A DNA stretch of 42,913 bases from Lysobacterales bacterium (GTDB taxonomy: Bacteria > Pseudomonadota > Gammaproteobacteria > Xanthomonadales > SZUA-36), in assembly GCA_021648125.1 (NCBI GenBank), contig JAKITK010000024.1:1-42913 (forward strand). The letters run 5' to 3'. Shown here in pieces: positions 1 to 42,267 of the stretch. The position numbers and the translations under genes are program-made. Each line of letters begins with the position of its first letter. Positions within the stretch are counted from its first letter, which is position 1. The notes under the pieces were generated by a model. That model ran no database searches. It was not told the origin of the DNA and saw only the letters and a list, made by a program, of their open reading frames with translations.

Positions 1-659
1 TACAGTAGGCAACACCTAAGAACCCAGCCTTTGGAGTTCCGTGCACAGATCGCGAGAGCACAAGGATGTGCGAAGCGATCCCACAGAGCAAAATTACAGT
101 AGGCAACACCTAAGAACCCAGCCTTTGGAGTTCCGTGCACAGATCGCGAGAGCACAAGGATGTGCGAAGCGATCCCACAGAGCAAAATTACAGTAGGCAA
201 CACCTAAGAACCCAGCCTTTGGAGTTCCGTGCACAGATCGCGAGAGCACAAGGATGTGCGAAGCCGATCCCACAGAGCAAAATTACAGTAGGCAACACCT
301 AAGAACCCAGCCTTTGGAGTTCCGTGCACAGATCGCGAGAGCACAAGGATGTGCGAAGCGATCCCACAGAGCAAAATTACAGTAGGCAACACCTAAGAAC
401 CCAGCCTTTGGAGTTCCGTGCACAGATCGCGAGAGCACAAGGATGTGCGAAGCGATCCCACAGAGCAAAATTACAGTAGGCAACACCTAAGAACCCAGCC
501 TTTGGAGTTCCGTGCACAGATCGTGAGAGCACAAGGATGTGCGAAGCGATCCCACAGAGCAAAATTACAGTAGGCAACACCTAAGAACCCAGCCTTTGCA
601 GTCATAAGCACAGATCGCGAGAGCACATGGATGTTTTGTACATGCCGGAAAAGCTCCGA
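1..659. repeat. Tandem array of seven 94-bp repeats with nested palindrome
   Basis: Units begin with TACAGTAGGCAACACC at 1, 95, 189, 284, 378, 472 and 566. The period is 94 bp; the third unit is 95 bp because of one extra C. The first six are nearly identical. The seventh diverges after about 34 bp, then resumes the core before decaying near 659. Each unit holds a nested hairpin (48-80 in unit 1): outer stem GATCGC/GCGATC, inner stem GCACA/TGTGC and loop AGGA (TCCT on the minus strand). Minus-strand open frames across the array shift with the 94-bp period and look non-coding. The array starts at or before the window edge, so the copy number is a minimum. Confidence 0.95.
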
Positions 660-730
660 GTAGCTTCAACCAGCGGTAAATAATTGAATTTGAGATGGGG
701 TTTCATTTCATCAAAACGAACGAGGGCTAT

Positions 731-2182
731 ATGTTTTACAATCTCAGCAAGCTCATTTTAATATTCCTGTTCATTGCATTGCTGGCCGTTACCAGTTTAG
801 CTAATACCAGCATTAGATCAGTAACAAATAATACAGTCTTTAAAGATAGCTTTGAGGCGCCAACGCCAGTTAATCAACCACCAATAGCCAATGCAGGCCC
901 TGCCCAACCCCTGATGGAGCTCACTCAAGGCCAGCTTGATGGTAGCGGCAGTAGCGACCCCGATGGCACTATTAGCCAATATCAATGGCAACAGACCCAG
1001 GGGCAGCCCGCCTTTATTGAAAATGCCAATACCGCGCTCACCAATATCATCACCCCTGCAGTTGGTGTCGATACCGTACTCACCTTTGAGCTAACGGTAA
1101 CCGATAACCAGGGGCTGAGCAGCACGGCCGCAACCACCGTTACCGTACAGCCCGATATTACCGATGGCGATATTGACGGTGACGGCATTGCTGATGAGAA
1201 CGACCTGTTTCCAAACGACGGTGATGAGGCCTACGACTTTGATGGTGATGGTATTGGTGATAATGCCGATACCGATCGAGATGGCGATGGTATCGATAAC
1301 GACAGCGACTGGTATCCCAATGACCCCGGTCTGAACGCCGCGCCCGTATTAACCATTACCTCACCACTGGAGGCAGCAACCCACAATAGCGGCAGGTTGC
1401 GGGTAACCGGCACCCTTAGCGCAGCCCCCAATACCGGTATTACCGTCAATGGTATTGTCGCCCGCCTAGGCGGTGATCCCTACGGCAGTGAATTTGCAGT
1501 AATGATACCGCTTGAGCAGGGCAGCCAGGATATTACCGTCACCGCCACATTACTGAGCAGAAAACAAATAAGCCAAACGGTAACTGTTACCGGTGGCGCC
1601 CAAGACCTGTTCCTTGCTTATGCTGACTCTGAGCATACCTTTGCTCCGGCTTCGGTTGAATTTAACCTTATTAACTTGAACCAGACTGGTATCCAGCGTA
1701 TTGATGTGGATTTTGACGGTGATGGTAATATCGATCAGGTTATCGACAATGGCTTTGGGCAAAGTATCAGTTACGACTACAGCCAAGCCGGAATATACCT
1801 GCCCGTTATCACCGTTGTAGATACCGACAACATAAGTCACCGCAATGATCTAGTCGTGGGAATCGAATCCGAAGCTCAGCGTAACCTGCTGCTACAGCAA
1901 GTATGGAACGGAATGAATGCCGCGCTGGTATCGGCTAACCTGGGTTTAGCTAAAGAGCATCTATTTATTGGAGATACCGTGGGTGGCTATGGTCAAGTAT
2001 TTTACCTGCTATTGCCGTTTATGGACGATATCGTTGCTAGCTATTCGCTGTTACAGCCAGTTACCACCGAGTTGGAATATGGCGAGTATCTGATTAACCG
2101 GGATATTGATGGTATCAACCGCGCCTTCTTCGTCTACTTAATGGCAAACGGTAATGGCGTTTGGCGAGTACGGAGTATGTAG
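731..2182 (+). CDS. Secreted PKD / thrombospondin-type-3 calcium-repeat protein
   Basis: This is probably an exported, calcium-binding adhesive or structural protein. I chose the ATG at 731 because GAGGG sits 4 bases upstream and it places a clean signal peptide at residues 1-26 (hydrophobic run LILIFLFIALLAV, then a cleavage-like SLA). An in-frame ATG at 695 has a poorer site and would bury the signal. From the chosen start: a PKD-type Ig domain at about 47-140 (NAGPAQ, GSGSSDPDG, FELTVTDNQG); acidic DxDxDG repeats at about 145-198 typical of TSP3 calcium repeats; an Ig-like segment at about 205-285; a second PKD-like stretch to about 370 containing DFDGDGNID; and a C-terminal part I do not recognise. 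It is the first gene of a four-gene same-strand exported cluster. Its stop lies 2 bases before the next start. No enzymatic motif is seen. Confidence 0.85.
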   Translation: MFYNLSKLILIFLFIALLAVTSLANTSIRSVTNNTVFKDSFEAPTPVNQPPIANAGPAQPLMELTQGQLDGSGSSDPDGTISQYQWQQTQGQPAFIENANTALTNIITPAVGVDTVLTFELTVTDNQGLSSTAATTVTVQPDITDGDIDGDGIADENDLFPNDGDEAYDFDGDGIGDNADTDRDGDGIDNDSDWYPNDPGLNAAPVLTITSPLEAATHNSGRLRVTGTLSAAPNTGITVNGIVARLGGDPYGSEFAVMIPLEQGSQDITVTATLLSRKQISQTVTVTGGAQDLFLAYADSEHTFAPASVEFNLINLNQTGIQRIDVDFDGDGNIDQVIDNGFGQSISYDYSQAGIYLPVITVVDTDNISHRNDLVVGIESEAQRNLLLQQVWNGMNAALVSANLGLAKEHLFIGDTVGGYGQVFYLLLPFMDDIVASYSLLQPVTTELEYGEYLINRDIDGINRAFFVYLMANGNGVWRVRSM

Positions 2183-2184
2183 TT

Positions 2185-3030
2185 ATGGGTGACCTTTATT
2201 CACCAATTTTCATAATACCTTTTATCATTGCGTATTATTTCTGGATTTTAGTATTACCTATACTGGTTGCCCAGCTATTGGTATATATGCTGACAAAGCA
2301 TTTTGGCTGGGAGCTTAAAAAGAAACATAAATGGCTCTGGATCATTCTGTTGGCAAGCATTTGGATTACCTATCCCTGGTTTAGTATTGTTGAAGATATA
2401 GAAGGCAGGGTTGTTGATGTAACCGGCCAGCCCATAGAAGGAGTGCTGGTGACGGCTCTTTGGGAGTATGAGCCGATAATCCCGGTCACCGACCTTATTT
2501 CTAGGAGCGGCTCCAATGCTGCCCAAGCAAGAGAAGCTGTGACCAATAAAGAGGGGCGTTATCGGATTTACGGATTTACCTACCTCCCATCTTTTAATCA
2601 TAAACTGCGGTTACTTGAGCCAGAGGTGAGGTTTTACCATGAGGATCTGCGGGTTGATTACAGGCTAAGCAAGTTTTTGGGAACTACTTACCCACCAAAT
2701 TTCGATTGGGGTATTATCCGAGAAAGCAGTTGGAATGGTCTTGATGTGGTGATGGTTATATCAGACAACGGTTCTCTACAGAATGGGTATAGCGGGTCTC
2801 TGTGGGGATTTGTTAGTGATGTGTTAAGCGAAGATAATGATAATTGCATGTGGACAAATATTCCGAATGCAATTATCACTAGGCTTAAAGCTACTAAGAA
2901 TAGCGTATGGATTTCTGAAGATACAGTAAAGTTTGGTAGACGCTCATTACCTAGGAACATGGAGAAGTGTGGCGTAGATGTTAGTTTTTTTGAAGGACTG
3001 GATGAATGGAATATAAAAACTGTGCAATAG
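2185..3030 (+). CDS. Membrane protein with carboxypeptidase-regulatory-like domain
   Basis: 281 residues of unknown function. The ATG at 2185 is preceded by CGGAG and follows the previous stop by 2 bases; an upstream in-frame TTG at 2161 would overlap that gene. Residues about 8-38 are a long hydrophobic stretch, probably a membrane pass or hairpin, and a second segment (WLWIILLASIWITYPWF) follows at about 50-66. After it comes a beta-rich stretch (GRVVDVTGQPIEGVLVTA) that matches the CarboxypepD_reg / transthyretin-like fold often found in exported bacterial proteins. The rest is a soluble domain with no motif I recognise. It overlaps the following gene by 25 bp, so the two are probably co-translated. 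Its tight linkage to the neighbouring secreted proteins suggests a shared cell-surface role; that is inference. Confidence 0.75.
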   Translation: MGDLYSPIFIIPFIIAYYFWILVLPILVAQLLVYMLTKHFGWELKKKHKWLWIILLASIWITYPWFSIVEDIEGRVVDVTGQPIEGVLVTALWEYEPIIPVTDLISRSGSNAAQAREAVTNKEGRYRIYGFTYLPSFNHKLRLLEPEVRFYHEDLRVDYRLSKFLGTTYPPNFDWGIIRESSWNGLDVVMVISDNGSLQNGYSGSLWGFVSDVLSEDNDNCMWTNIPNAIITRLKATKNSVWISEDTVKFGRRSLPRNMEKCGVDVSFFEGLDEWNIKTVQ

Positions 3031-5897
3031 CTATAGCGTTGTCTACCCTGACAATACTGCCCGTTACTGGCTTGGCATATGAGACCCCCACCCATGAGAG
3101 GATGTCAGAGGCGGCACTGAAAAATTCGGTGCTGTTTGAGGCAGATGGGGTTCTCAAGGAGCTTGGTATAATCGTGCCAAACGATATAAAGGATTTTGCA
3201 ACTCCTGACGGTAGTTTATCTGATGAAGGAAACGAACGCTTCCATGATTTTTACCTGGAAAAAAACATCAAGAGCCAACGAAATGTTATCGGTCATGTAC
3301 GCCTAGGTTCAGCTTATGAAGATCACGAAAAGATCCTTTGGGCTTGTGCGCATTTTTTTGATCCAGAAAAAAAGCGGCGACTGAGGCCTGATTTGTGTCT
3401 GTTTGGATCCAACTTTCGCTCCCCCAATTGGGCTCTATATGGTGTCGATAAGGATGGAGAGTTGATAGCCAACCGCAGTGATGCATTAATGCGAGATGGC
3501 AACAACCGCTTTTTTTTAGCCTTGACCACTGAGAATAAAACCACCCGGGAAGAATATTTTGGCAGCCTTTTCCGCAATATCGGTCAGGGCATACATCATA
3601 TACAAGACATGACCCAACCACAGCATGTGCGCGATGATCCGCATCTTCCAGTTTTGGGTGAAGAAGTAAGTCTTTACGAAAAGTATTCCAATTGTAAGTA
3701 TAGGGTAAATGAACCAACAGTGAAGCCTGGTTGGACTATAAATACGATCAGCAATTTTCTTACAGGTAAATGTACATTTGACTCCCCACTAAAAGTGCCC
3801 CAAGACTATGCTGAAATCTCCTTAAACCAATTCAATCACTCAGAAAAGTTCTGGATAAATGAGGGTAAGGGGATGGCTGAATTTACCAATGCAAATTTTG
3901 TCTCCAAGGATACTAATTTCAGGATAAGTGGTCAGTTGTTGTCTGCCCCACCCCGGACCCTGACCTATAGCTATGGGAAGTACAAGCTACCTGACCCCAA
4001 TAACGATGGTGGGCCAATCATAGACATATCCAGAATTGAGGCACCAATTCCAGAGGGTCTTGGCAGTGGTCCTGATCAGCCCTTGCGTGGTGAAATCAGG
4101 TTTTTTGGCACCATGGTTAAGGATAAATATACGGGCACCAGTAAGCTAAACCCCCGTACCAGCTCGCTTTCTATATTTCATGATGACCTGAGATTGCAGA
4201 ATATAGCTATTCCTCTGGAACCTTTTGGTGTGCCTTCGCCTTTGCGCCTGTTCTCACTCAACAGATTCACTTTCGATGAAGCGCATAAATATCTGTTATC
4301 CCGCGCTGTGTCTTATAGCACCGGGCTGATCAACTACTTCTTCCGTGGTCGGGTGGCCATTAGCAATGTATTGTATCTGGGTGGTGATGAGATCATCATA
4401 ACAATTAAAAATGTCACTGCGGATAAGAACCTTGATGGCGCGGCCTATAGTTTTACCAATGGTAGTTTCTCTCTGTATTATGATGACGGGAATGGTAGCC
4501 GCTATAGAATACCCGCGAGATTTACTTTTGATGCCGTGCTGGTGGGAGATGAAATGTTAGAGAATGGTGACAAAAAGACCATAATCTTTAACTTATCACC
4601 TGATGGTACACCTATTGATATAGATATCAAAAAACCGCTTACCCTGATTTTTGATGGCGCTATAAGCCATGCGGATCTGGAGCGGAGTAAATGGGAGCGC
4701 GGCATCGCCGCCACCACTTTTTACGCCGAACCACTGCTATCTTTTGATATCAGCCGGTCAGATGGCAATGCGCCAGTGCCCAATGTTATCGACATATACT
4801 CATCTTATGACCTTGGGTTGAATTGGGAGCCAGTTGCAGAATCAGCTTTTTCCATAGCTTTCAGTGATACCACCCTTGACCCATCTAATCGCCTGGGGAT
4901 TAATGCGGTGGCTTATATTGGTAATCGGGAGCTACTGGTGTACCTAGATTATCTGGATTACAACAACGGTACACCCGGAAGCACTAGTCTAAGTATAGGA
5001 TCCTTACGCTTGAGTAGCTATGGCGCGGAAAATATACTGTCAGGTGTTGCGCTTGACTGGGGTACGGCAATTGGTGGGGCAGGTAATAATATCTTCGACA
5101 ATATGGCAACATTACACTCGCTAAGCGCCACCGGGCCAACCAGCCTGGCTGCACTCAGAATCAGCAAACCACCACTCACTGATCCACCACCCCGCGTCCG
5201 CACCTTTGAACTATTAACAATACCTGATTGGTCTGTGGATACCAATTGGGTAATGAGCGGCAACCCGGATGCAGGCGGCCTGCCTGAGCTTTCCTGGTTG
5301 GGCGGGGATGATTTTATTATGGCTACCCAGGTTGAGGCTTCTGAAACTGGCAACCCTGATGCGCGGGAGCGCGAGTCTGCATTACGAATAACCAACGATG
5401 GGGGTCTTAGCTATGCTGAGCTGGCAAGAATAGCCGTGTGTGAAGCAGATGATAACACCTGTGTACAACATGTTGTACCCATGGATGAAGGCCGCCTATT
5501 CGGTTGGATTGAACAACATGCCAGCGATTACCCTGGAACCACAATATTTTATACCTCCACCGATGCCGGTGCTTCCTGGCAGGTGCTGGGTACTGCACCT
5601 GAAACATCAGCATGCCAAGATAATGCCTTGCGTTATACTGAAGTAAATACCGTTATATATCTTGGCAGTAGTAGCCCTTTCATACCTTTTGTTAATGATG
5701 TTTTTTTTATAGAAACCACTTGTAAGGAGATCATTGAGGATGGCGGCTTTTACAGTGGCTTGAATATAATCAGTACTAATGTATTTGCCAGCAAAGATAG
5801 CGCTAGGAACTGGACTGAGGTAATCAAACCACCCAAAATGAATGGCCGGATTATTTATGCAGGCGATAACGGAGTTGTTCCAGGGATTTTTGACTAA
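3006..5897 (+). CDS. Secreted zinc phospholipase C-like protein with Asp-box repeats
   Basis: 963 residues with a signal peptide at 1-24 (ending TGLA). The mature N-terminus carries a histidine pattern like the zinc-dependent phospholipase C / S1-P1 nuclease superfamily: THERM near 29, RFHDFY near 80, AHFFDP near 117 and GIHHIQDMTQPQHVRDD at about 195-211, where the H-x3-D and later H are the expected metal ligands. The middle is unrecognised beta-rich sequence. The C-terminal half has at least four Asp-box-like motifs (SSYDLGLNW near 600, TNDGGLSY near 794, STDAGASW near 850, SKDSARNW near 928), which usually mark sialidase-type propeller blades. The start overlaps the upstream gene by 25 bp. 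A lipid- or nucleic-acid-degrading secreted enzyme is plausible; the substrate is not determinable here. Confidence 0.8.
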   Translation: MEYKNCAIAIALSTLTILPVTGLAYETPTHERMSEAALKNSVLFEADGVLKELGIIVPNDIKDFATPDGSLSDEGNERFHDFYLEKNIKSQRNVIGHVRLGSAYEDHEKILWACAHFFDPEKKRRLRPDLCLFGSNFRSPNWALYGVDKDGELIANRSDALMRDGNNRFFLALTTENKTTREEYFGSLFRNIGQGIHHIQDMTQPQHVRDDPHLPVLGEEVSLYEKYSNCKYRVNEPTVKPGWTINTISNFLTGKCTFDSPLKVPQDYAEISLNQFNHSEKFWINEGKGMAEFTNANFVSKDTNFRISGQLLSAPPRTLTYSYGKYKLPDPNNDGGPIIDISRIEAPIPEGLGSGPDQPLRGEIRFFGTMVKDKYTGTSKLNPRTSSLSIFHDDLRLQNIAIPLEPFGVPSPLRLFSLNRFTFDEAHKYLLSRAVSYSTGLINYFFRGRVAISNVLYLGGDEIIITIKNVTADKNLDGAAYSFTNGSFSLYYDDGNGSRYRIPARFTFDAVLVGDEMLENGDKKTIIFNLSPDGTPIDIDIKKPLTLIFDGAISHADLERSKWERGIAATTFYAEPLLSFDISRSDGNAPVPNVIDIYSSYDLGLNWEPVAESAFSIAFSDTTLDPSNRLGINAVAYIGNRELLVYLDYLDYNNGTPGSTSLSIGSLRLSSYGAENILSGVALDWGTAIGGAGNNIFDNMATLHSLSATGPTSLAALRISKPPLTDPPPRVRTFELLTIPDWSVDTNWVMSGNPDAGGLPELSWLGGDDFIMATQVEASETGNPDARERESALRITNDGGLSYAELARIAVCEADDNTCVQHVVPMDEGRLFGWIEQHASDYPGTTIFYTSTDAGASWQVLGTAPETSACQDNALRYTEVNTVIYLGSSSPFIPFVNDVFFIETTCKEIIEDGGFYSGLNIISTNVFASKDSARNWTEVIKPPKMNGRIIYAGDNGVVPGIFD

Positions 5898-5965
5898 GCG
5901 CTGCTGAATTGAATATTGGAATAAGAAAAAAGCGCTATGGTGGACTCTTATCGAGGAGAAAGATA

Positions 5966-6523
5966 ATGGATAAAGTAATATTAGCATTTATCGTTGGGCT
6001 GGCTATCTTCGCTGTCAACTCTGTCCGCGCACAGAATCTGGCAGTAGAAGAAAGCAACAGAACAATTGAAAACAAGACCTTGCAGGTGTTGAGAATATCT
6101 GATCGCTGGATCTGGTTAGATGCTGTGGACTATGGGTGGAAAAGATTCAAAATACCAGATGATTTCAGCTTTATTGTTGATAGTGAAGCTGTAAGCTTGG
6201 ATGAAATTGTTGTAGGGCAAAAATTGAATGTTTATATCACCAGAACAGAAACTGATTGGATTCTGCTTTCTGAGCCTGGTGGAGTAGAGGCGGTTGAAGA
6301 TACTAATGCGGGGGAAGAGGAGTCTCCTGCTATGCCTACTATCACCATGAGCGAGGTTGTTATCACCAGTACAGTACCGAATATTTATATCATGAGCACT
6401 GGGACGACTCTGGTTCCAATTTCTGAAGTTGATGGAACAAGGGCTGTTGAAGATACTGAGGTAGACAAATGTATAGTGATACCGCAAGAGAGCCTGAAAT
6501 GCCACAAGCGGCGAGATAGATAG
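5966..6523 (+). CDS. Small secreted hypothetical protein
   Basis: 185 residues, not recognised. The ATG at 5966 follows a strong GAGGAG site; an in-frame ATG at 5909 lacks one and would add 19 basic residues before the signal peptide. Residues 1-23 form a signal peptide (VILAFIVGLAIFAV, cleavage after VRA). The mature part begins with a short beta-rich domain (about 30-110) containing a tryptophan-rich stretch (DRWIWLDAVDYGW), followed by an acidic linker and a valine-rich tail ending in two cysteines. It lies 68 bp after the phospholipase-like gene on the same strand and is the last gene of the exported cluster. The region just downstream in the same frame is transposase-derived, so the native C-terminus may have been altered by an insertion. 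Confidence 0.65.
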   Translation: MDKVILAFIVGLAIFAVNSVRAQNLAVEESNRTIENKTLQVLRISDRWIWLDAVDYGWKRFKIPDDFSFIVDSEAVSLDEIVVGQKLNVYITRTETDWILLSEPGGVEAVEDTNAGEEESPAMPTITMSEVVITSTVPNIYIMSTGTTLVPISEVDGTRAVEDTEVDKCIVIPQESLKCHKRRDR

Positions 6524-6547
6524 CCAGCGGCTGTATCAAGCAGTTGC

Positions 6548-6646
6548 CTGAGGCGACTTGAAGAAAAATACCCGGCAGCGATGAAGTGTCTGGTGAAAGA
6601 TAAAGAAGCGATGCTGGCCTTTTATAACTTTCCGACTGTACACTGC
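6548..6646 (+). pseudogene. IS256-type transposase C-terminal fragment
   Basis: Conceptual translation from 6548 gives LRRLEEKYPAAMKCLVKDKE followed by AMLAFYNFPTVH. This matches the conserved segment of Mutator/IS256 transposases before the TTNPIES motif. The homology then stops abruptly and the frame runs into the 91-bp repeat array. There is no start codon, no catalytic DDE region and no inverted repeat, so this is a scrap. It lies in the same frame as the gene ending at 6523, directly after its stop. A second IS256 scrap (N-terminal) lies at 39006. Confidence 0.6.
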
Positions 6647-6703
6647 GACATATCCGGATCAGCAATCCTACCACTGGCGACACAGGTCGCGAGAGCAGGT
6701 CAC

Positions 6704-7150
6704 GATCTACCTTGAGTGGGGTTTAACTACGATATTTATTTATTGAGCTTTGGCGTTTCCTCTAGAGATCGCTCTTTTGCATCCATGCAACCGCGATCTA
6801 CCTTGAGTGGGGTTTAACTACGATATTAATTTGTTGGATTTTGGCGTTTCGTGTAAGCATCGCTCTTTTGCATCCTTGCAACCGCGATGTACCTTGAGTG
6901 GAGTTTAACTACGATATTTATTTATTGAGCTTTGGCGTTTCCTCTAGAGATCGCTCTTTTGCATCCTTGCAACCGCGATGTACCTTGAGTGAAATTGAGC
7001 TTTTGTATTAGTTTATTGGCTTTCGAGTTTTCCTATATCGCTCTTTTGCATCCATGCAACCGCGATGTACCTTGAGTGAAATTGAGCTTTTGTATTAGTT
7101 TATTGGCTTTCGAGTTTTCCTATATCGCTCTTTTGCATCCATGCAACCGC
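6704..7150. repeat. Tandem array of five 91/87-bp repeats with nested palindrome
   Basis: Units start at GAT(C/G)TACCTTGAGTG at 6704, 6795, 6886, 6977 and 7064. The first three are 91 bp. The last two are 87 bp, near-identical to each other, and differ from the first three in the central filler. Each junction carries a nested hairpin (6767-6798 for the first): outer stem GATCGC/GCGATC, inner stem TTGCA/TGCAA, loop TCCA or TCCT. The outer stem equals that of the 94-bp array at 1-659, but the filler sequence is unrelated. No coding capacity is seen. Confidence 0.95.
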
Positions 7151-7156
7151 GACATA

Positions 7157-7172
7157 CCTACATCCTTGTAGG
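7157..7172. repeat. Solitary hairpin, stem CCTACA/TGTAGG, loop TCCT
   Basis: A perfect 6-bp stem with loop TCCT follows directly after the last unit of the 91/87-bp array. It shares the loop but not the stem sequence with the array hairpins, and looks like another member of the same hairpin family. Confidence 0.7.
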
Positions 7173-7178
7173 CAAAAT

Positions 7179-7237
7179 GCCCGGAACAGGAAAAAGAGGG
7201 GAAACCTGTTCCGGGCGCTTGTTAGCAAGCTAACAAG
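7179..7237. repeat. Two adjacent perfect inverted repeats
   Basis: The first hairpin has 12-bp perfect arms GCCCGGAACAGG (7179-7190) and CCTGTTCCGGGC (7205-7216) around a purine-rich loop. The second has 9-bp arms CTTGTTAGC/GCTAACAAG (7218-7226, 7229-7237) around AA. No T-run follows on either strand, so an ordinary intrinsic terminator is not clearly supported. It could be a double terminator, a transcript-stabilising structure or the end of a mobile element. Confidence 0.75.
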
Positions 7238-7654
7238 TAAAGTTGACCCAAGCGGGCCGAACTTATACCAACCGTCAGATGAAGAAGAAGGGGGGTTCTT
7301 GCTTCACCCTTAACGACTGATGGTACTTTCTGTAGGTTCCGAGCAATTCATTCACCCATCCAAAACCTACCTGATATGGCGTATCTTATATATTAATAAT
7401 AAATAAAACAATTGATAATTTCTTATTGTTAGCCCTAGATATATTTATGCCATAATAGATTTTACAAAAGAGATGATATTTATAGCAACAAAGGAGCCTC
7501 TAACTCCTTCAAAATGAAGTGCTTTGGGGTTCCAAATTATTCAATAACAAGGTGAACTATGTGGAAATTACCTCACAATTACGCCTTCCTGAATGAATAA
7601 CTATTAAAATTGTGGCTGCAGATTGCCCATTTTTAATAAACCTGGGGTACTTTA
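7238..7654. other. AT-rich leader region of the LysR gene
   Basis: There is no gene of ordinary size here. The stretch is AT-rich, especially 7380-7470, and probably contains the LysR gene promoter. A 13-codon frame at 7559-7600 (ATG to TAA, MWKLPHNYAFLNE) has AAGGTG upstream at good spacing. It might be a leader peptide, but nothing beyond the ribosome site supports it. Confidence 0.35.
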
Positions 7655-8560
7655 ATGAATTATAGAAAGATTCCTCCACTGCGTGCATTGCGTGCATTTG
7701 TAGCCTCTGCCAAACATTTGAGCTTCACCCGGGCAGCCGAAGATCTCTATGTAACTCAGGCGGCCGTTAGCCTGCAAGTCAAACAGCTAGAAGAATTTCT
7801 CGAAATACCACTATTTATTCGTGGTAGCCGTAGTCTGACGATGACCGCTCAGGGTAAAATCTATTTACAGGATGTTAATGTTGCACTGAAAGAGTTAGCC
7901 GCAGCCACCGAAAGGGTAACCCGGCGTAACCGTAATGTTGAATTGGTGGTCAGCACCCTCACCTCTTTCGCTGAGCGCTGGCTGATTCCTAAACTGCCGG
8001 ATTTCCAACAGGCTCATGCGAATATGGATATCCGTATTACGGCATCAGAGTGGGTCGTTGATTTTGATCGTGACGGCGTAGATTTAGCCATTCGTTATGG
8101 TGGCGGTGAATGGCCAGATACCAACTCCACACTGCTGTTAAGGGATAATATTTTTCCGGTTTGCAGCCCTGGTTTATGTGAAAATTCGAAGCTCCCCTGC
8201 AAGGCAGAAAATCTGGCGCAATTCACCCTGCTGCACGATGACTACGCTCGCGAAGACTGGATGCAATGGCTGAAAGTAGCCGGAATTACCAGCGTTGATG
8301 CTCAGCGAGGTTTAAGCTTTAGTCATTCGAGCATGATGCTTGAAGCTGCAGCACAAGGCATGGGCTTGGCACTGGGGCACACTTCACTTATCCAGGATGA
8401 CCTCAAGTCTGGGCGTTTGATTAAGCCTTTTGAATCCTGCCTGCGAGACGAAATGGCTTACTATATTGTCACCCCGGTGGGCACTGACAATAAGCTGGCA
8501 AATGTATTTCGCGACTGGCTGTTGGAAGAAGCACGACAAAAGCCACTTCTGAAAAACTAG
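7655..8560 (+). CDS. LysR-family transcriptional regulator, GcvA-like
   Basis: 301 residues with a standard LysR layout. An N-terminal winged helix-turn-helix occupies about 6-65 (PPLRALRAFVASAKHLSFTR, then AAEDLYVTQAAVSLQVKQLE), closely resembling the GcvA branch. The periplasmic-binding-type effector domain follows at about 92-295 (SFAERWLIPKLPDFQ, DGVDLAIRYGGGEWP). GcvA proteins control glycine-cleavage genes, but relatives regulate many unrelated targets and no gcv gene is nearby, so the target is unknown. It is not in an operon: the upstream side is a long intergenic and repeat region, and the downstream gene converges. The start follows CTGGGGTAC at moderate spacing, with no better alternative. 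Confidence 0.88.
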   Translation: MNYRKIPPLRALRAFVASAKHLSFTRAAEDLYVTQAAVSLQVKQLEEFLEIPLFIRGSRSLTMTAQGKIYLQDVNVALKELAAATERVTRRNRNVELVVSTLTSFAERWLIPKLPDFQQAHANMDIRITASEWVVDFDRDGVDLAIRYGGGEWPDTNSTLLLRDNIFPVCSPGLCENSKLPCKAENLAQFTLLHDDYAREDWMQWLKVAGITSVDAQRGLSFSHSSMMLEAAAQGMGLALGHTSLIQDDLKSGRLIKPFESCLRDEMAYYIVTPVGTDNKLANVFRDWLLEEARQKPLLKN

Positions 8561-8612
8561 AGTTAGCCGCTGCGCGGAAAGAGAATAAAATCCGGCCTGG
8601 TTATTAGAAATA

Positions 8613-8957
8613 TCATCCTGGCGGCCATGTTAACGCCCGCCCAGCAAGTAAGTGTAAATGTATATGCCATACCGCCTGGCCAGCAGCTTCGCCACAATTC
8701 ATCACTACTCTGTAGCCCTCATCTGCAAATCCAGCTTGTTTAGCAATATCCCGTGCGGCCAAATATAACTCACCGATTAAGCCTGTTTGATGATCAGAAA
8801 TGTCATTGATTGTACGAATTTTTTCCTTGGGAATAATCAAGATATGAGTTGGTGCCTGCGGGTTTATGTCTCTGAAAGCCAGTACAGTTTCGGTTTCATA
8901 TACAATCTCCGCAGGTATTTCACGGGCAATAATTTTTTCAAACAGGTCTTCGGACAT
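8613..8957 (-). CDS. HIT-family nucleotide hydrolase (HinT-like)
   Basis: 114 residues, the usual length for HinT purine-nucleoside phosphoramidase. The start MSEDLFEKI at 8957 has GGAGAG upstream; a longer open frame extends further but lacks family similarity. The family signature HIHLHLLAGR lies at about 97-106, and the terminal LTWPPG is typical. Enzymes of this group hydrolyse AMP-lysine and related phosphoramidates in the cytoplasm. It is divergent from the AdaA/Ogt-type gene (about 70 bp between starts) and convergent with the LysR gene. Confidence 0.92.
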   Translation of the reverse strand: MSEDLFEKIIAREIPAEIVYETETVLAFRDINPQAPTHILIIPKEKIRTINDISDHQTGLIGELYLAARDIAKQAGFADEGYRVVMNCGEAAGQAVWHIHLHLLAGRALTWPPG

Positions 8958-9029
8958 GTGGACTCTCCAATAATTTATTAGCGCAAGAAACGGGTGGTCT
9001 ATACCGCAGTTATCACGCAAAATAGCACA

Positions 9030-9890
9030 ATGAATAATAGTAACAGCGAAACACCTCGGAAACATTATCAAACGGTAACTAAGGCACTGCATTATCTCAA
9101 AGATAGGCAACTTGAGCAGCCATCACTGGAAGAACTGGCGGCACAACTGCAGTTGAGCCCGGCCTATTTGCAGCGAGTTTTTCAGGCATGGGCCGGCGTC
9201 AGTCCAAAGCAATTCCTTCGTCATCTCACCCGTGATGCCGCCGTAAAACGACTAAAAACCGGCGCCACTGTGTTTGATGCAGCTATTGACAGTGGCTTAT
9301 CCGGCAGTAGTCGACTGCATGACTTACTGATTCATACTGATGCACTCACCCCGGGACAGGCGCGAAATGCCGGGAAACACCTGAGTATTTGTTGGGGTTT
9401 TTATTTCTCACCTTTTGGCAGCTGTTTATTAGCCTGGACTGAGCGCGGTCTCGCTTTCCTAGGCTTTTCCTCAATTAGAGGAAAACAATACGCCATTGCT
9501 GAACTGCAACAACAATGGCCATTGGCTAGTCTGCTGGAGAAGCCTAAGGAAGCGCAGGTATGGGGGGAACGAATTTTCACTATATCTACCGATCAACCGC
9601 TGCCGGTGTGGCTCGCGGGCAGTCCATTTCAATTAAAAGTTTGGCAGGCATTACTTAAAATTCCAGATAATGCGAATGTGACCTATGGCGACCTAGCTAC
9701 TGCCACCGGCAACCCCAGAGCCGCGCGTGCGATCGGTACAGCTGTAGGACGCAATCCAATTTCGCTTTTAATCCCTTGCCATCGGGTTATCCGAAAAATG
9801 GGGGTTATTGGCGAGTATCGCTGGGGCACAGAGATAAAAATGTCTATACTTGCCCAAGAAAACATCAACTGCCACATTTCTACAGGGTGA
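9030..9890 (+). CDS. AraC-type regulator fused to methylated-DNA cysteine methyltransferase (Ada-like)
   Basis: About 286 residues. The N-terminal part (about 15-100) is an AraC helix-turn-helix pair (LEELAAQLQLSPAYLQRVFQ, SPKQFLRHLTRDAAVKRL). The C-terminal part is an O6-alkylguanine-DNA alkyltransferase with the acceptor-cysteine signature IPCHRVI and the downstream GEYRWG. Such fusions repair O6-methylguanine by irreversible methyl transfer to the cysteine. The Ada N-terminal phosphotriester-repair domain with its zinc cysteines is absent, so the usual damage sensor is missing. The start is uncertain: ATG 9030 is used, but an in-frame GTG at 8994 is possible and neither has a strong ribosome site. 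The next gene begins 4 bases after this stop. Confidence 0.88.
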   Translation: MNNSNSETPRKHYQTVTKALHYLKDRQLEQPSLEELAAQLQLSPAYLQRVFQAWAGVSPKQFLRHLTRDAAVKRLKTGATVFDAAIDSGLSGSSRLHDLLIHTDALTPGQARNAGKHLSICWGFYFSPFGSCLLAWTERGLAFLGFSSIRGKQYAIAELQQQWPLASLLEKPKEAQVWGERIFTISTDQPLPVWLAGSPFQLKVWQALLKIPDNANVTYGDLATATGNPRAARAIGTAVGRNPISLLIPCHRVIRKMGVIGEYRWGTEIKMSILAQENINCHISTG

Positions 9891-9894
9891 GAAA

Positions 9895-10470
9895 ATGCAA
9901 GTTCATAAGTTAGAGTTCGTTGCTTTATTTCTACTAACCAGCGTATTTCTTTCATCTATCGCTGTAGCTGATCAGTTGAAAAATATTGATAATTATCTGG
10001 AATATTCACCGATATTTTCCAGTTCAGGTCAGCCGAACAAACAACAGCTGTCGTTGCTGTCTGAAAATAAGTTCAAAAGAATCATCTACTTAGCTTTTAG
10101 CGACCAGTCCACATCACTAGCAAAAGAAGACCGAATTGTAAAATCCCTGAATATGGACTTTGTGCATATTCCGGTTGACTTTGAAAAGCCAACTTTGAAT
10201 GACTTCAACATGTTTGCTGCTGTAATGAAGACAAACCCCGGGGCAAAGACCCTGCTCCATTGCCAAATTAATTTACGCGCTTCCACCTTCAGTTTTCTTT
10301 ATCGGGTGATACACAAGCAAGTTCCTATGAAAACGGCTAAAGATGATCTTGATAAAATATGGGAACCAAATCCAGTCTGGTTTAAGTTTATCAAAACTGT
10401 TTTAGACAGCCATGGCCTAAACCCGGAGTGTGATGATTGCGACTGGGGTAGCAATACCTTTAGCGACTAA
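9895..10470 (+). CDS. Exported protein-tyrosine-phosphatase-like protein
   Basis: 191 residues. ATG 9895 is preceded by GGGTGAG and lies 4 bases after the Ada-like stop, so the two are probably co-transcribed. Residues 1-26 form a signal peptide (FVALFLLTSVFLSSIAVAD). The mature protein has the cysteine-phosphatase loop LLHCQINLRAS (HCx5R) at about 124-134 and a general-acid candidate in VDFEKP upstream, as in the DSP/DUF442-type family. It is likely a periplasmic phosphatase, but the loop is not the classical HCxxGxxR because asparagine replaces glycine, so activity should not be assumed. The C-terminus has two close cysteines (CDDC). Confidence 0.72.
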   Translation: MQVHKLEFVALFLLTSVFLSSIAVADQLKNIDNYLEYSPIFSSSGQPNKQQLSLLSENKFKRIIYLAFSDQSTSLAKEDRIVKSLNMDFVHIPVDFEKPTLNDFNMFAAVMKTNPGAKTLLHCQINLRASTFSFLYRVIHKQVPMKTAKDDLDKIWEPNPVWFKFIKTVLDSHGLNPECDDCDWGSNTFSD

Positions 10471-10524
10471 CCGTTGAGTAGGAGCACTTGGTGTTCTGGT
10501 TTTGATTAATTTAGAAATTTAATC

Positions 10525-11247
10525 TTAGATTATCGAGCCTGAGTCTAAACGATGTTGATTGTTTTTAGAAAGCAACCACTCAATAATTCCTTGAGCAACT
10601 ATATCCACTTCTCGGGCAGGATCACTCGCACTGGGCATCCAGGCTTTTGCCCGCAGACTGGTCCGCATAGGGCCGGGGTTAATACCATTAACCCTGATAC
10701 CATCGTGATCTAACTCGGCTTTGAGTTGTTCGATCAGTGCAAGCAAGGCAGATTTACTGACCCCGTAACTACCCCAGTTGGCTTCTTGCATAGTTTGCAT
10801 ATCTTCCAACAAAAAAACCAGTCGGGCATTACCCGCCTGCTTGAGTAAGGGCAGACAAGTTTTACTCAGTAGCCAGGGTCCATTAAGATTGGTTTGTATG
10901 CTCCGCAGCCATTCCAGCGGATCAGTATGCGCCATGGGCGCAAGTGCTGTAAACCGCGCGGCTGTATGAATAAGAATATCCAGCTTCCCCAGCTGTGTTT
11001 CTAAGGCTTCTGCCATTTGCGTATATTGGTCGATACTGGGTATTTCTAGATCCAGAGGGTAAATCAACGGTTCATAATTACACTCAGACTGGATTCGGTC
11101 TGCTACTTGGTTCAAGCCACTTTCGTTGTTATCCAACAAGATCAACTCCAATTGATCTGCTTGACACATGCGCCCAAGCTGCAATGCCAGCTCACTACCC
11201 AGGCCACCGACGGCACCGGTAATTAGTATATTTTTTGTTGTTGCCAT
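10525..11247 (-). CDS. yciK: Short-chain dehydrogenase, YciK-like
   Basis: About 240 residues, a classical SDR oxidoreductase. It has the cofactor loop ITGAVGGLGSE, the catalytic YGVSK (Y-x3-K) and INPGPMRTSLRAKAW, which is typical of YciK. In pseudomonads yciK follows mupP and ubiG; here two small genes intervene, but the neighbourhood still supports the name. The usual NNAG is replaced by HTAA, as in this subgroup. The substrate of YciK is unknown. Start: ATG 11247 gives a short lead before the Rossmann fold; an in-frame ATG at 11289 is an alternative. It is divergent from the FmdB-type gene. Confidence 0.8.
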   Translation of the reverse strand: MATTKNILITGAVGGLGSELALQLGRMCQADQLELILLDNNESGLNQVADRIQSECNYEPLIYPLDLEIPSIDQYTQMAEALETQLGKLDILIHTAARFTALAPMAHTDPLEWLRSIQTNLNGPWLLSKTCLPLLKQAGNARLVFLLEDMQTMQEANWGSYGVSKSALLALIEQLKAELDHDGIRVNGINPGPMRTSLRAKAWMPSASDPAREVDIVAQGIIEWLLSKNNQHRLDSGSII

Positions 11248-11366
11248 GATATTCCGCTGCTTACTTTCATAATTGACAAGATCGGTCATTATATAGCCTG
11301 CGTCAATGCTAAAATACCCGTATTCCACTGATTATTTTCAAATCAAACCATTTGAGGTTCCCTGGT

Positions 11367-11657
11367 ATGCCAATTTATGTCTATCAGCCCAGCGGGGATA
11401 GCAGTTGCGATTTCTGTAGTGCCGGCTTTGAAAAACTCGAAAAACTGACTGAGCCCAGGCTAAGTACCTGTCCGCACTGCGCTGCGCCTTGTAAACAGGT
11501 GATTACCGCGCCTAATTTACACGCTGGCATGAGTTCGCTGAAGCCTAAAAACCTTGCTGAAAAGGGTTTTACCCAATACCGCAAAGTGAGCAAGGGTGTG
11601 TATGAAAAATCTGCTGGTAAAGGGCCGCAGTATATTTCCGATGATGGCAAGGATTGA
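11367..11657 (+). CDS. FmdB-family zinc-ribbon protein
   Basis: 96 residues starting MPIYVYQP, as is usual for this family; an ATG 15 bases upstream is less likely. The two cysteine pairs CDFC and CPHC form a putative zinc ribbon within the first 50 residues, followed by a charged flexible tail. FmdB-type proteins are widespread and were first linked to formamidase regulation, but their general function is unknown. Single gene, divergent from the YciK-like gene. Short hairpins follow the stop (CCGGTA/TACCGG at 11669-11683) without a T-run. Confidence 0.82.
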   Translation: MPIYVYQPSGDSSCDFCSAGFEKLEKLTEPRLSTCPHCAAPCKQVITAPNLHAGMSSLKPKNLAEKGFTQYRKVSKGVYEKSAGKGPQYISDDGKD

Positions 11658-11741
11658 ATTGTTATTTTCCGGTAAGCTACCGGCGCAAGGCCGGCATGAG
11701 GACACAATTGCACGGCTTATGGCAGGTATATGCCGAAAACT

Positions 11742-12125
11742 TTACGAAATCAGTGAGCTGATAGAATCTTCCCAGTTCTCTCCGTCAAAATCTTCAATGC
11801 TGATGGAGTGAATTGTCTCGGGGTCCAGGCAATTTATATTGACACTGTAGCCGGAGGGGTGGGAACGCGGGATATAAAAAGATTTAACCCCGCAATGTTT
11901 ACAAAAAAGATGATGGGCGGTTTTGCTATTAAATTGGTAGTTTGTGAGTGAGTTTTTACCGCTCAACAGCTCAAAATTCTCAGCGCTGACTATCAGGTGT
12001 AAAAACCCGCTTTGACTACAAATAGAACAATTGCATTTAACCGCTTTAATCGCGGCGGCTGCTGTAACCTTAAAGCGTATTTTTCCGCAATGACAGCCAC
12101 CACTATGTTGAATTATTTTCGTCAT
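11742..12125 (-). CDS. GFA-family (CENP-V/GFA domain) protein
   Basis: 127 residues. The family's zinc-binding cysteines are all visible: GGCHCG near 10-14, CNCSICS near 31-37 and FCKHCG near 74-79. The family is named after glutathione-dependent formaldehyde-activating enzyme, but most members have no proven formaldehyde role and there are no formaldehyde genes nearby. The start overlaps the mupP stop by 4 bp (ATGA), so it is translationally coupled as the last gene of the minus-strand efp-mtaD-ubiG-mupP run. Confidence 0.87.
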   Translation of the reverse strand: MTKIIQHSGGCHCGKIRFKVTAAAAIKAVKCNCSICSQSGFLHLIVSAENFELLSGKNSLTNYQFNSKTAHHLFCKHCGVKSFYIPRSHPSGYSVNINCLDPETIHSISIEDFDGENWEDSISSLIS

Positions 12126-37609: not shown

Positions 37610-37757
37610 CTCGTGGCAAAAACGGGAATGCTTCTATTAGGCGTCTGTCCCGTCTACCTGCTCGTGGCAAAAACGGGAATGCTTCTATTAGGCGTCTGTC
37701 CCGTCTACCTGCCGTCTACCTGTCTACCTATCCCGTCTACCTACCCCGTCTACCTGC
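37610..37757. repeat. 51-bp tandem duplication followed by CCGTCTACCTG microrepeats
   Basis: CTCGTGGCAAAAACGGGAAT... starts at 37610 and again at 37661; the two 51-bp copies are identical. They are followed by four or five short degenerate copies of CCGTCTACCTG to about 37757. The frame across the array encodes only the repeat peptide and lacks a ribosome site, so I do not call a gene. The remainder of 37343-37897 holds no other feature I can support. Confidence 0.85.
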
Positions 37758-42190: not shown

Positions 42191-42212
42191 GACAGTAAGT
42201 AATAAAAATAAA

Positions 42213-42267
42213 AAATAAAAAAAGGACAGACAGAGCGCCAAAATAAAAAAAGGACAGACAGAGCGCC
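42213..42267. repeat. 28-bp direct repeat at the intron 5' side
   Basis: AAATAAAAAAAGGACAGACA followed by GAGCGCC occurs at 42213-42239 and 42241-42267, with a poorer partial copy before it (about 42182-42196). The second copy runs straight into the group II intron RNA region. Confidence 0.8.

What the first reader, a model, noticed from the sequence alone, without database searches (positions are those of the whole stretch)
1..7150. Exported-protein cluster bracketed by two repeat arrays with the same outer stem
Four same-strand exported or membrane genes (731-6523) lie between the 94-bp array (1-659) and the 91/87-bp array (6704-7150), with a transposase scrap at the right edge. The arrays could be recombination borders that let the cluster be gained, lost or swapped. 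The proteins (calcium-repeat PKD, membrane protein with regulatory-like domain, phospholipase-like with Asp boxes, small secreted) look like a surface or secreted system that I cannot match to a described one.
Basis: inference. Interest (0 to 1): 0.62.

Follow-up and report, generated by a model that had tools for sequence, protein, structure and literature searches.

The report
Swappable-cassette phospholipase operon beside repeat arrays
The genes between the two repeat arrays include a widespread, apparently undescribed three-gene secreted phospholipase-like operon whose catalytic half seems to be exchanged between bacteria as a cassette together with its neighbouring envelope-protein gene; here it sits at a repeat-rich site that is empty in a close relative.

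Summary
The arrays, the four genes and the transposase scrap are real. In the closest relative with the same right flank (G003, 89-91% identical) the two arrays abut with nothing between: an empty site. The array-1 hairpin arm recurs at the right inner edge of the insert (6681-6697). The arrays are not needed, though: a paralogous cluster in the same genome lies between folK and pgi without arrays, and in 78 homologous loci the only long-period tandem arrays found lie inside ORFs. Gene 4 is not part of the system. The other three form a conserved operon: g1 (secreted PKD/Ig), g2 (membrane protein or lipoprotein, transthyretin-like), g3 (zinc-phospholipase-C fold, nine conserved ligand positions, variable C-terminal module); g1 precedes g3 in 52 of 56 testable loci. 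The unexpected part is modularity. In related pairs [g1 end-g2-g3 N-half] is replaced while the g1 body and/or g3 C-half stay 82-91% identical in DNA; g2 co-varies with g3N, not g3C; the same unit occurs as tandem truncated copies in several genomes, including this one. I read it as a polymorphic effector-partner locus with a 5' cassette. Enzymatic activity and immunity are inferred.

The parts
1..659 (.). Array 1: 94-bp hairpin units, 6.7 copies; contig starts inside it
   Evidence: two copies in G003 beside array 2
609..625 (+). Last array-1 arm CACAGATCGCGAGAGCA = left inner edge of the insert
695..2182 (+). g1: secreted protein with PKD (K319L-like), Glucodextran_B-like Ig domain and conserved C-terminal domain ending VWR(I/V)xSM
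2161..3030 (+). g2: N-terminal membrane helices, transthyretin-like (CarboxypepD_reg-like) domain; many homologues show a lipobox-like sequence by eye; overlaps g1 and g3
   Evidence: (below Pfam cut-off)
3006..5897 (+). g3: secreted zinc-dependent phospholipase-C-fold protein with variable C-terminal module
3078..4346 (+). g3N: PLC-fold domain, residues 25-447, nine conserved ligand positions
4347..5894 (+). g3C: beta region then Asp-box propeller-like module (lower-confidence model)
5966..6523 (+). Gene 4: small secreted protein, not part of the conserved operon
6539..6668 (+). Remnant of a Mutator/IS256-like transposase gene; part of the same remnant follows the deleted copy in C34
6681..6697 (+). 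Array-1 arm (1 mismatch) at the right inner edge of the insert
6703..7159 (.). Array 2: 91/87-bp hairpin units, 5.1 copies
   Evidence: orthologous array directly after array 1 in G003

Best explanation
The cluster is one copy of a widespread three-gene operon for a secreted zinc phospholipase-C-like enzyme. g1 is an exported Ig/PKD protein. g2 is an envelope-anchored (often lipoprotein-like) transthyretin-like protein. g3 is a Sec-exported PLC-fold hydrolase (g3N) fused to an exchangeable C-terminal module (g3C; Asp-box propeller-like in the window). [end of g1-g2-g3N] behaves as a 5' cassette that is swapped by recombination against a retained g3C, and spare [g2-g3N] units can sit in tandem, mostly upstream of the full-length g3. 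The most likely working: g3 cleaves phospholipids of other cells, g2 is the matched partner that restrains or folds its own g3N in the producer's envelope (immunity-like), and cassette exchange changes the enzyme-partner pair. In the window genome this accessory module was inserted into a pre-existing hairpin-repeat site. Shown by computation: operon conservation, predicted fold and ligand conservation, block replacement, g2-g3N co-variation, empty sites. Inferred: enzymatic activity, target, g2's role, and that tandem copies serve as donors.
For: Operon: of 78 genome loci examined (of 104 relatives found), 56 have at least 2.5 kb upstream of g3; 52 have g1, 36 g2, 9 more an unassigned ORF in the g2 slot, 4 neither. 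Fold: in VIA-align the first 13 entries are all PLCs, Z 13.9-16.9 (B. cereus PLC 1ah7 Z 15.9, 218 of 245 aligned, 4.0 A); model residue 25 (24 in two rows) falls on chain residue 1; the next entry has Z 8.7. Ligand columns in 45 rows: H30, D106, H116, H197, H207, H213, E225 45 of 45, D201 44, Y25 43; a weak profile alignment to Listeria PLC (E 0.0044; its H116 part alone is not significant) supports H116, H197, D201, H207 and E225. Cassette: L064/L069 DNA 83-88% up to 216 nt before the g1 stop, two scraps of 92 and 61 nt over about 2.0 kb, then 91% from g3 codon 372 to the g3 end; L078/L088 87-90%, one 77-nt scrap over about 2.0 kb, then 88% to the g3 end; L059/L060 82% from within g3 through 3 kb downstream. 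g3N tree: L069 with L062 (100/95), L064 with L065 (93/91); clade {L064,L069} rejected, p 0.024. Over 32 loci g2~g3N rho 0.75, g2~g3C 0.13; partial 0.74 (p 0.0005) against 0.06 (p 0.22). Tandem [g2-truncated g3] units: own C24, L063, L065, L083, L086; the middle unit of L065 and the unit of L083 differ from the full gene in their 5' part but share 80% DNA over their last 539 and 686 nt. Empty sites: G003 for the arrays, G002 for folK-pgi.
Against: No function is known for any member. Foldseek itself ranks sortilin propellers (matching g3C) above PLCs, E 1.5e-5 against 1.1e-4. g2 is absent, with no ORF of 120 aa in its slot, in L060 and six other g1-bearing loci, so an obligatory immunity gene is not universal. 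8 of 12 genomes searched have a single g3 match and no truncated copy, so donors may come by transfer rather than from a local store. Downstream of the g3 stop the L064/L069 and L078/L088 loci do not align either, so the replaced block is not the only variable part there. The truncated unit of L063 (84.5% DNA) and the first unit of L065 (86%) are near-copies of the full gene, not alternative alleles. Six of ten truncated copies lack some ligands. {L078,L088} is not rejected on g3N (p 0.22), and the g3N tree has long branches and a bootstrap that had not settled. L058/L059 show no swap. g1C co-varies with g2 and g3N too (rho 0.75-0.77), so the g2 link is not exclusive. The g3 model is of moderate confidence (pLDDT 69).
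Confidence: 0.5

Rival explanations
1. g2 is a foldase, chaperone or anchor for g3, not an immunity protein; g3 is a scavenging secreted phospholipase or nuclease.
For: g2 carries a transthyretin-like domain; TTR-like domains of VgrG proteins bind and stabilise the phospholipase effectors PldA/PldB (PMC6684961, passages). g2 lies upstream of g3, unlike the downstream partner genes reported for Tle1 (PMC9860674, passages) and MafB (PMC4287609, passages). S1/P1 nucleases share this fold, as the review PMC3482391 says (passages).
Against: Tandem extra g2 copies without a full g3 partner and faster g2 evolution in the own genome (dN/dS 0.71, 0.49 and 0.37 for three copies, against 0.36 for g3N and 0.15-0.21 for g1) fit a specificity partner in conflict somewhat better. 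TTR-like folds are common, and Z is only 6-7.
Confidence: 0.35
2. The cassette reflects surface variation against phages, predators or host immunity rather than effector-partner warfare.
For: Exported, modular, patchily distributed (4 of 22 genomes in the genus of L059; 4 of 19 in that of L088, one only a fragment); block replacement beside retained sequence.
Against: Catalytic ligands are kept in nearly all of 45 aligned full-length proteins, and g2 is tied to g3N rather than to g3C.
Confidence: 0.12
3. Tandem [g2-g3N] copies are only decaying duplications, and the apparent swaps are fast divergence.
For: Several copies are short fragments (own C24 91 aa and about 50 aa, L086); L063 and the first unit of L065 are near-copies of the full gene; C34 is a deleted remnant.
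Against: Sharp right-hand DNA breakpoints in three pairs and left-hand ones in two, conflicting tree for L064/L069, truncated copies with full ligand sets (L026 246 aa, L065 both, L083) and dN/dS 0.18-0.36, although part of that may predate truncation.
Confidence: 0.2
4. One reading: the two arrays are recombination borders that let this cluster be gained, lost or swapped.
For: Arrays abut in G003; array-1 arm on both inner edges; G002 holds other genes in the interval.
Against: Paralogue in C24 without arrays, C34 copy without arrays on a 3-kb contig, no intergenic array of this kind found at 78 other loci, dispersed array-2-like stretches. The left border of the window is a contig end.
Confidence: 0.35

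Closest known systems
Polymorphic toxin-immunity systems with cassette reservoirs (MafB/MafI; CdiA-CT/CdiI recalled)
   Same: Modular exported protein, co-varying small partner gene, truncated alternative cassettes with their own partner gene, evidence of block exchange
   Different: In MafB the N-terminus is constant and C-terminal cassettes with mafI lie downstream (PMC4287609, passages). Here the exchanged half is N-terminal, the partner is encoded upstream, and spare units mostly precede the full-length gene. Toxicity and immunity untested
Type VI lipase effectors with lipoprotein immunity (Tle/Tli; PldB with tli5b123)
   Same: Phospholipase beside an envelope-anchored partner, sometimes several partner copies (PMC9860674 and PMC6684961, passages)
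   Different: g3 has a Sec-type signal (by eye) and a PLC fold, not a Tle fold (Tle fold recalled, not tested); no VgrG, Hcp or PAAR gene was recognised by eye in the ORFs listed
Zinc-dependent phospholipase C / S1-P1 nuclease / Het-C superfamily
   Same: PLC fold, mature N-terminal aromatic residue, HxxxDxxxxxH and further ligands
   Different: Window g3 does not reach Pfam PF00882; extra beta insert and Asp-box module; conserved operon partners
REP-like palindromic repeat arrays (recalled as a class)
   Same: Short hairpins in tandem and dispersed copies
   Different: No associated transposase tested; no Rfam match in window 1-7700

Membership tests
Zinc-dependent phospholipase C superfamily (fold) | PLC fold over the catalytic domain | tested here: met
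   VIA-align Z 13.9-16.9 for the first 13 entries, all PLCs, next Z 8.7
Zinc-dependent phospholipase C superfamily (fold) | Nine metal-ligand positions | tested here: met
   Conserved in 43-45 of 45 rows; five mapped on 8cqm, the rest by recall of the PLC ligands and spacing
Zinc-dependent phospholipase C (Pfam PF00882) | Curated profile score | tested here: not met
   No match for the window g3; L065 g3 14.3 bits against 26.8 needed
Zinc-dependent phospholipase C superfamily (fold) | Phospholipase activity | not testable with these tools
   Needs an assay
Polymorphic toxin-immunity system | Variable effector half exchanged as a cassette with its partner gene | tested here: met
   one of two tested clades rejected
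Polymorphic toxin-immunity system | Constant N-terminal trafficking part, variable C-terminal toxin | tested here: not met
   The block replaced in L064/L069, L078/L088 and L059/L060 is N-terminal; C-terminal exchange also occurs between more distant members
Polymorphic toxin-immunity system | Partner neutralises effector | not testable with these tools
   Needs co-expression
Type VI lipase effector-immunity pair | Association with T6SS genes (VgrG, PAAR, adaptors) | tested here: inconclusive
   ORF listings of the window 1-12000 and some loci show none by eye; no family scan of the flanks
Known anti-phage defence system | PADLOC model match | tested here: not met
   0 of 5 proteins matched
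Site bordered by recombining repeat arrays | Same cluster flanked by arrays elsewhere | tested here: not met
   Not seen at C24, C34 or 78 other loci, many of them cut by contig ends
Site bordered by recombining repeat arrays | Empty site with joined arrays | tested here: met
   G003

The most novel reading that the evidence does not exclude
An 'inside-out' polymorphic effector locus: the catalytic PLC domain and its upstream envelope partner form a 5' cassette that is swapped onto a retained C-terminal targeting module, with spare [partner-catalytic domain] cassettes stored upstream of the full-length gene; g2 is a cognate immunity protein of a new transthyretin-like type.
Probability: 0.35. 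Interest if true: 0.78.

Novelty: new variant of a known kind. Interest (0 to 1): 0.6.

Why it matters
An exported phospholipase-like operon found across Beta- and Gammaproteobacteria, and in a few records titled as other phyla, appears in none of the listings of searches (PubMed Central open papers only). Its modularity is the mirror image of the best-known cassette toxins: the enzyme half and an upstream partner move, the C-terminal module stays. If g2 is a cognate inhibitor, this gives a new effector-immunity class and a clear test of how effector-partner pairs are exchanged. The two arrays give a direct view of insertion at (or loss from) a hairpin-repeat site, by comparison with a close relative that has the empty site.

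Tried and rejected
Four genes as one unit: rejected, gene 4 travels apart. Arrays as an essential part: rejected. Rfam for the arrays: no match. PADLOC: none for 5 proteins. NCBIfam: no family for g2 or g3 of the window. Gene 1 as a calcium-repeat protein: TSP_3 is below its cut-off (0.017). Nearest-neighbour agreement between g3N and g3C is low (17 of 63), but at such distances it is noisy and I rest no claim on it; one search left out 36 of 102 g3 ORFs without the splitting motif and 3 more for length. One search used 32 loci, only those with g1, g2 and a splittable full g3. Finding the left flank of the window in its own genome failed: the G003 left-flank protein has no match in G000. In alignment A5 the row L050 3816-4913 (minus) was a wrong-strand ORF; the true g1 there is 3834-4862 (+); that row was left out of the g1 model. 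The kinase and response-regulator genes of G002 in the interval may be core genes rather than cargo; not settled (one search compared them only with loci in hand). The Foldseek list for g2 is headed by dioxygenases at E 0.001 or worse, taken as the shared TTR-like sandwich only. Families not listed in the fold searches are not thereby excluded. In C24 one 10-base match to the array-2 core lies inside the start of an ORF, taken as chance.
Full report
OBSERVATION. The window is one whole contig (C93) of a 3.23-Mb, 111-contig assembly and starts inside array 1. Array 1 is 94 bp x 6.7 at 1-634, array 2 is 91/87 bp x 5.1 at 6703-7159. Single-strand DNA folding gives the same nested hairpin in both, outer stem GATCGC/GCGATC; the inner loops, AGGA and TCCA/TCCT, are close to reverse complements. 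The 94-bp unit occurs only in this contig, with two short stem-only hits elsewhere; array-2-like stretches occur on four other contigs. The four ORFs and the Mutator-type transposase remnant are as described.

THE SITE. The right flank (7478-11593) aligns to G003 at 89-91%. There two array-1 units (L147 589-762) are followed directly by array 2 (about 814-1225) and then the LysR gene, with no gene between the arrays. G003 is only about 60% complete, but this stretch is contiguous. In the window, homology on the left stops at about 634 and resumes at about 6703, and the last array-1 arm CACAGATCGCGAGAGCA recurs at 6681-6697 with one mismatch; with up to three mismatches no other copy exists in the 42.9 kb outside array 1. 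G002 keeps a relative of the left-flank repeat protein, a degenerate hairpin after it and the LysR flank (69% identical), with EF-hand, kinase, lipoprotein and regulator genes (named by eye) in between. In G001 the contig begins 487 nt before LysR and shows a different short direct repeat instead. So the site is a repeat-rich, variable interval; the cluster was inserted there, or lost in G003. The own-genome paralogues and the G002 data favour gain but do not prove it.

THE CLUSTER IS A REPEATED, MOBILE MODULE. The same genome has a second cluster at C24 between folK and pgi: g1 (1068 aa), then g2, g3 fragment (246 aa), g2, g3 fragment (91 aa), g2, g3 fragment of about 50 aa. No array was found there. 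In G002 folK and pgi are neighbours, a second empty site; in G012 two other genes lie between them and in G001 the neighbourhood is rearranged. A third copy in C34 (3 kb) keeps part of g1, a piece of gene 4 and part of the same transposase remnant, with large deletions. G002 carries the last 47 residues of a g3 at a contig end. G001 and G003 gave no g3 or g1 match.

THE CONSERVED OPERON. Of 121 genomes (own plus 120 relatives), 5 had g3 matches and 8 had g1 matches, the own genome included; in G096, G117 and G068 the two are neighbours. A pattern-based scan of the collection of 84,980 species genomes gave 104 relatives of g3, of which 78 loci were kept and examined, mostly Beta/Gammaproteobacteria, with some records titled Rokubacteria, Nitrospirae, Spirochaetes, Verrucomicrobia, Thermoanaerobaculia and Deltaproteobacteria (MAG titles, taxonomy not checked). 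With three profiles built from the first members, 56 loci have at least 2.5 kb upstream: g1 in 52, g2 in 36, 9 more with an unassigned ORF in the g2 slot, 4 with neither (L095, L104, L114, L127; in L095 a g1 ORF exists but overlaps g3, so it was not counted). Of the 22 loci with shorter upstream DNA, 6 show g1 and 7 g2. Gene 4 was found in none of the 78.

WHAT THE PROTEINS ARE. g3: signal peptide (by eye), then Y-E-x-x-T-H. The AlphaFold model (45 sequences, pLDDT 69, pTM 0.62, better in much of 25-445) matches zinc phospholipases C above all others in VIA-align: the first 13 entries, Z 13.9-16.9, next entry Z 8.7, model residue 25 (24 in two) on chain residue 1. Foldseek on the whole model ranks sortilin propellers first (1.5e-5) and PLCs from rank 7 (1.1e-4). 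Ligand columns are conserved in 43-45 of 45 rows, and a weak profile alignment to Listeria PLC (E 0.0044) supports five of them; the names of the nine PLC ligands are recalled. g3C resembles Asp-box propellers (sortilin, YCF48; VIA Z about 8), with low local confidence. g2: membrane helices in the window, a lipobox-like sequence in many homologues (read by eye), a transthyretin-like domain at 75-204 (Z 6-7, under the level at which the tool calls a match safe) and a variable rest. g1: PKD/Ig domains of very different length and a conserved C-terminal domain.

THE CASSETTE. In L064/L069 the upstream flank (87.5%), g1 (83%) and g3C (91%) align as DNA, but 5049-7059 does not, apart from two scraps of 92 and 61 nt; beyond the g3 stop the loci do not align again except for one 59-nt scrap. 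In L078/L088 the same holds for 4931-6904 (one 77-nt scrap), between 87-90% upstream and 88% in g3C, again ending near the g3 stop. In L059/L060 g3C and about 3 kb downstream align at 82%, upstream only partly and more weakly, and L060 has no g2. Proteins tell the same: g3C 66-97% per 100 residues while g3N is 25-65% and g2 41-48%. The converse also occurs: L071/L074 and L064/L065 have related g3N (37-74%) and much less similar g3C (16-47%). On g3N, L069 joins L062 and L064 joins L065, and {L064,L069} is rejected (p 0.024); {L078,L088} is not rejected (p 0.22). L058/L059 show no swap, and L197 carries the L059 allele. Over 32 loci, g1C, g2 and g3N correlate with each other (0.75-0.77) and hardly with g3C (0.12-0.19); partial g2~g3N given g3C 0.74 (p 0.0005), g2~g3C given g3N 0.06 (p 0.22). 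The replaced unit corresponds to the one found in tandem truncated copies: C24, L063, L065, L083, L086. In L065 (middle unit) and L083 the spare unit differs from the full gene in its 5' part but shares 80% DNA over its last 539 and 686 nt, which would allow recombination into the full gene; the L063 unit and the first L065 unit are instead near-copies of the full gene (84.5 and 86%). Of ten truncated copies checked, four keep all nine ligand residues and six do not. dN/dS of truncated against full copies is 0.18-0.36, which need not postdate truncation. 8 of 12 genomes searched have a single g3 match.

MECHANISM. Shown by computation: a conserved operon, a predicted PLC fold with intact ligand set, block replacement of [g2-g3N], patchy distribution (4 of 22 and 4 of 19 genomes in two genera), empty sites. 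Inferred: g3 is an active secreted phospholipase (or nuclease); g2 is its cognate envelope partner, somewhat more likely inhibitor than foldase; spare cassettes serve as donors. Published parallels, seen as passages: MafB/MafI cassettes with constant N-terminus (PMC4287609); lipoprotein immunity of phospholipase effectors and the tli5b123 genes (PMC9860674, PMC6684961); TTR-like domains that chaperone phospholipases (PMC6684961); Het-C as a toxin domain related to the PLC/S1-P1 fold (PMC3482391). The listings of searches showed no paper on this operon.

VERDICT. The finding is real and the site hypothesis is partly right. The arrays are where the module landed, not what it is. The more interesting object is the operon and its 5' cassette.

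Noticed in passing
7174-7235: A hairpin stretch (CCCGGAACAGG...CCTGTTCCGGG) upstream of the LysR gene is kept at 85-88% in G002 and G012, where the rest of that intergenic region did not align; perhaps a terminator or regulatory element.
   Followed up: no
L147 3-491, L149 3-320, L150 7170-8072: A protein of VDGDGTGIA / GLGNGTG-type short repeats with a related end lies at the left of this site in three genomes but has no match in the window's own assembly.
   Followed up: partly
L148 1-120: In G001 the same spot before the LysR gene has a different short direct repeat (ACCGGATCAAGTCCGGCATGACG), suggesting a repeat-prone site.
   Followed up: no
L149 835-4812: EF-hand, sensor kinase, lipoprotein and response-regulator genes (by eye) occupy the site in G002; cargo or ancestral content not settled.
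   Followed up: partly
L044 80-355: A RelB/DinJ-like antitoxin ORF (by eye) lies next to the deleted cluster copy in C34.
   Followed up: no
37610-37712, 42212-42267: Perfect two-copy tandem repeats of 51 and 28 bp elsewhere in the window.
   Followed up: no
L060 1621-2484, L088 2930-3731: Tandem repeats of 270-279 bp inside g1, so g1 length probably varies by repeat number.
   Followed up: no
L076, L105, L132: Three g3 loci come from MAG records titled Klebsiella pneumoniae; the title is probably wrong, taxonomy not checked.
   Followed up: no
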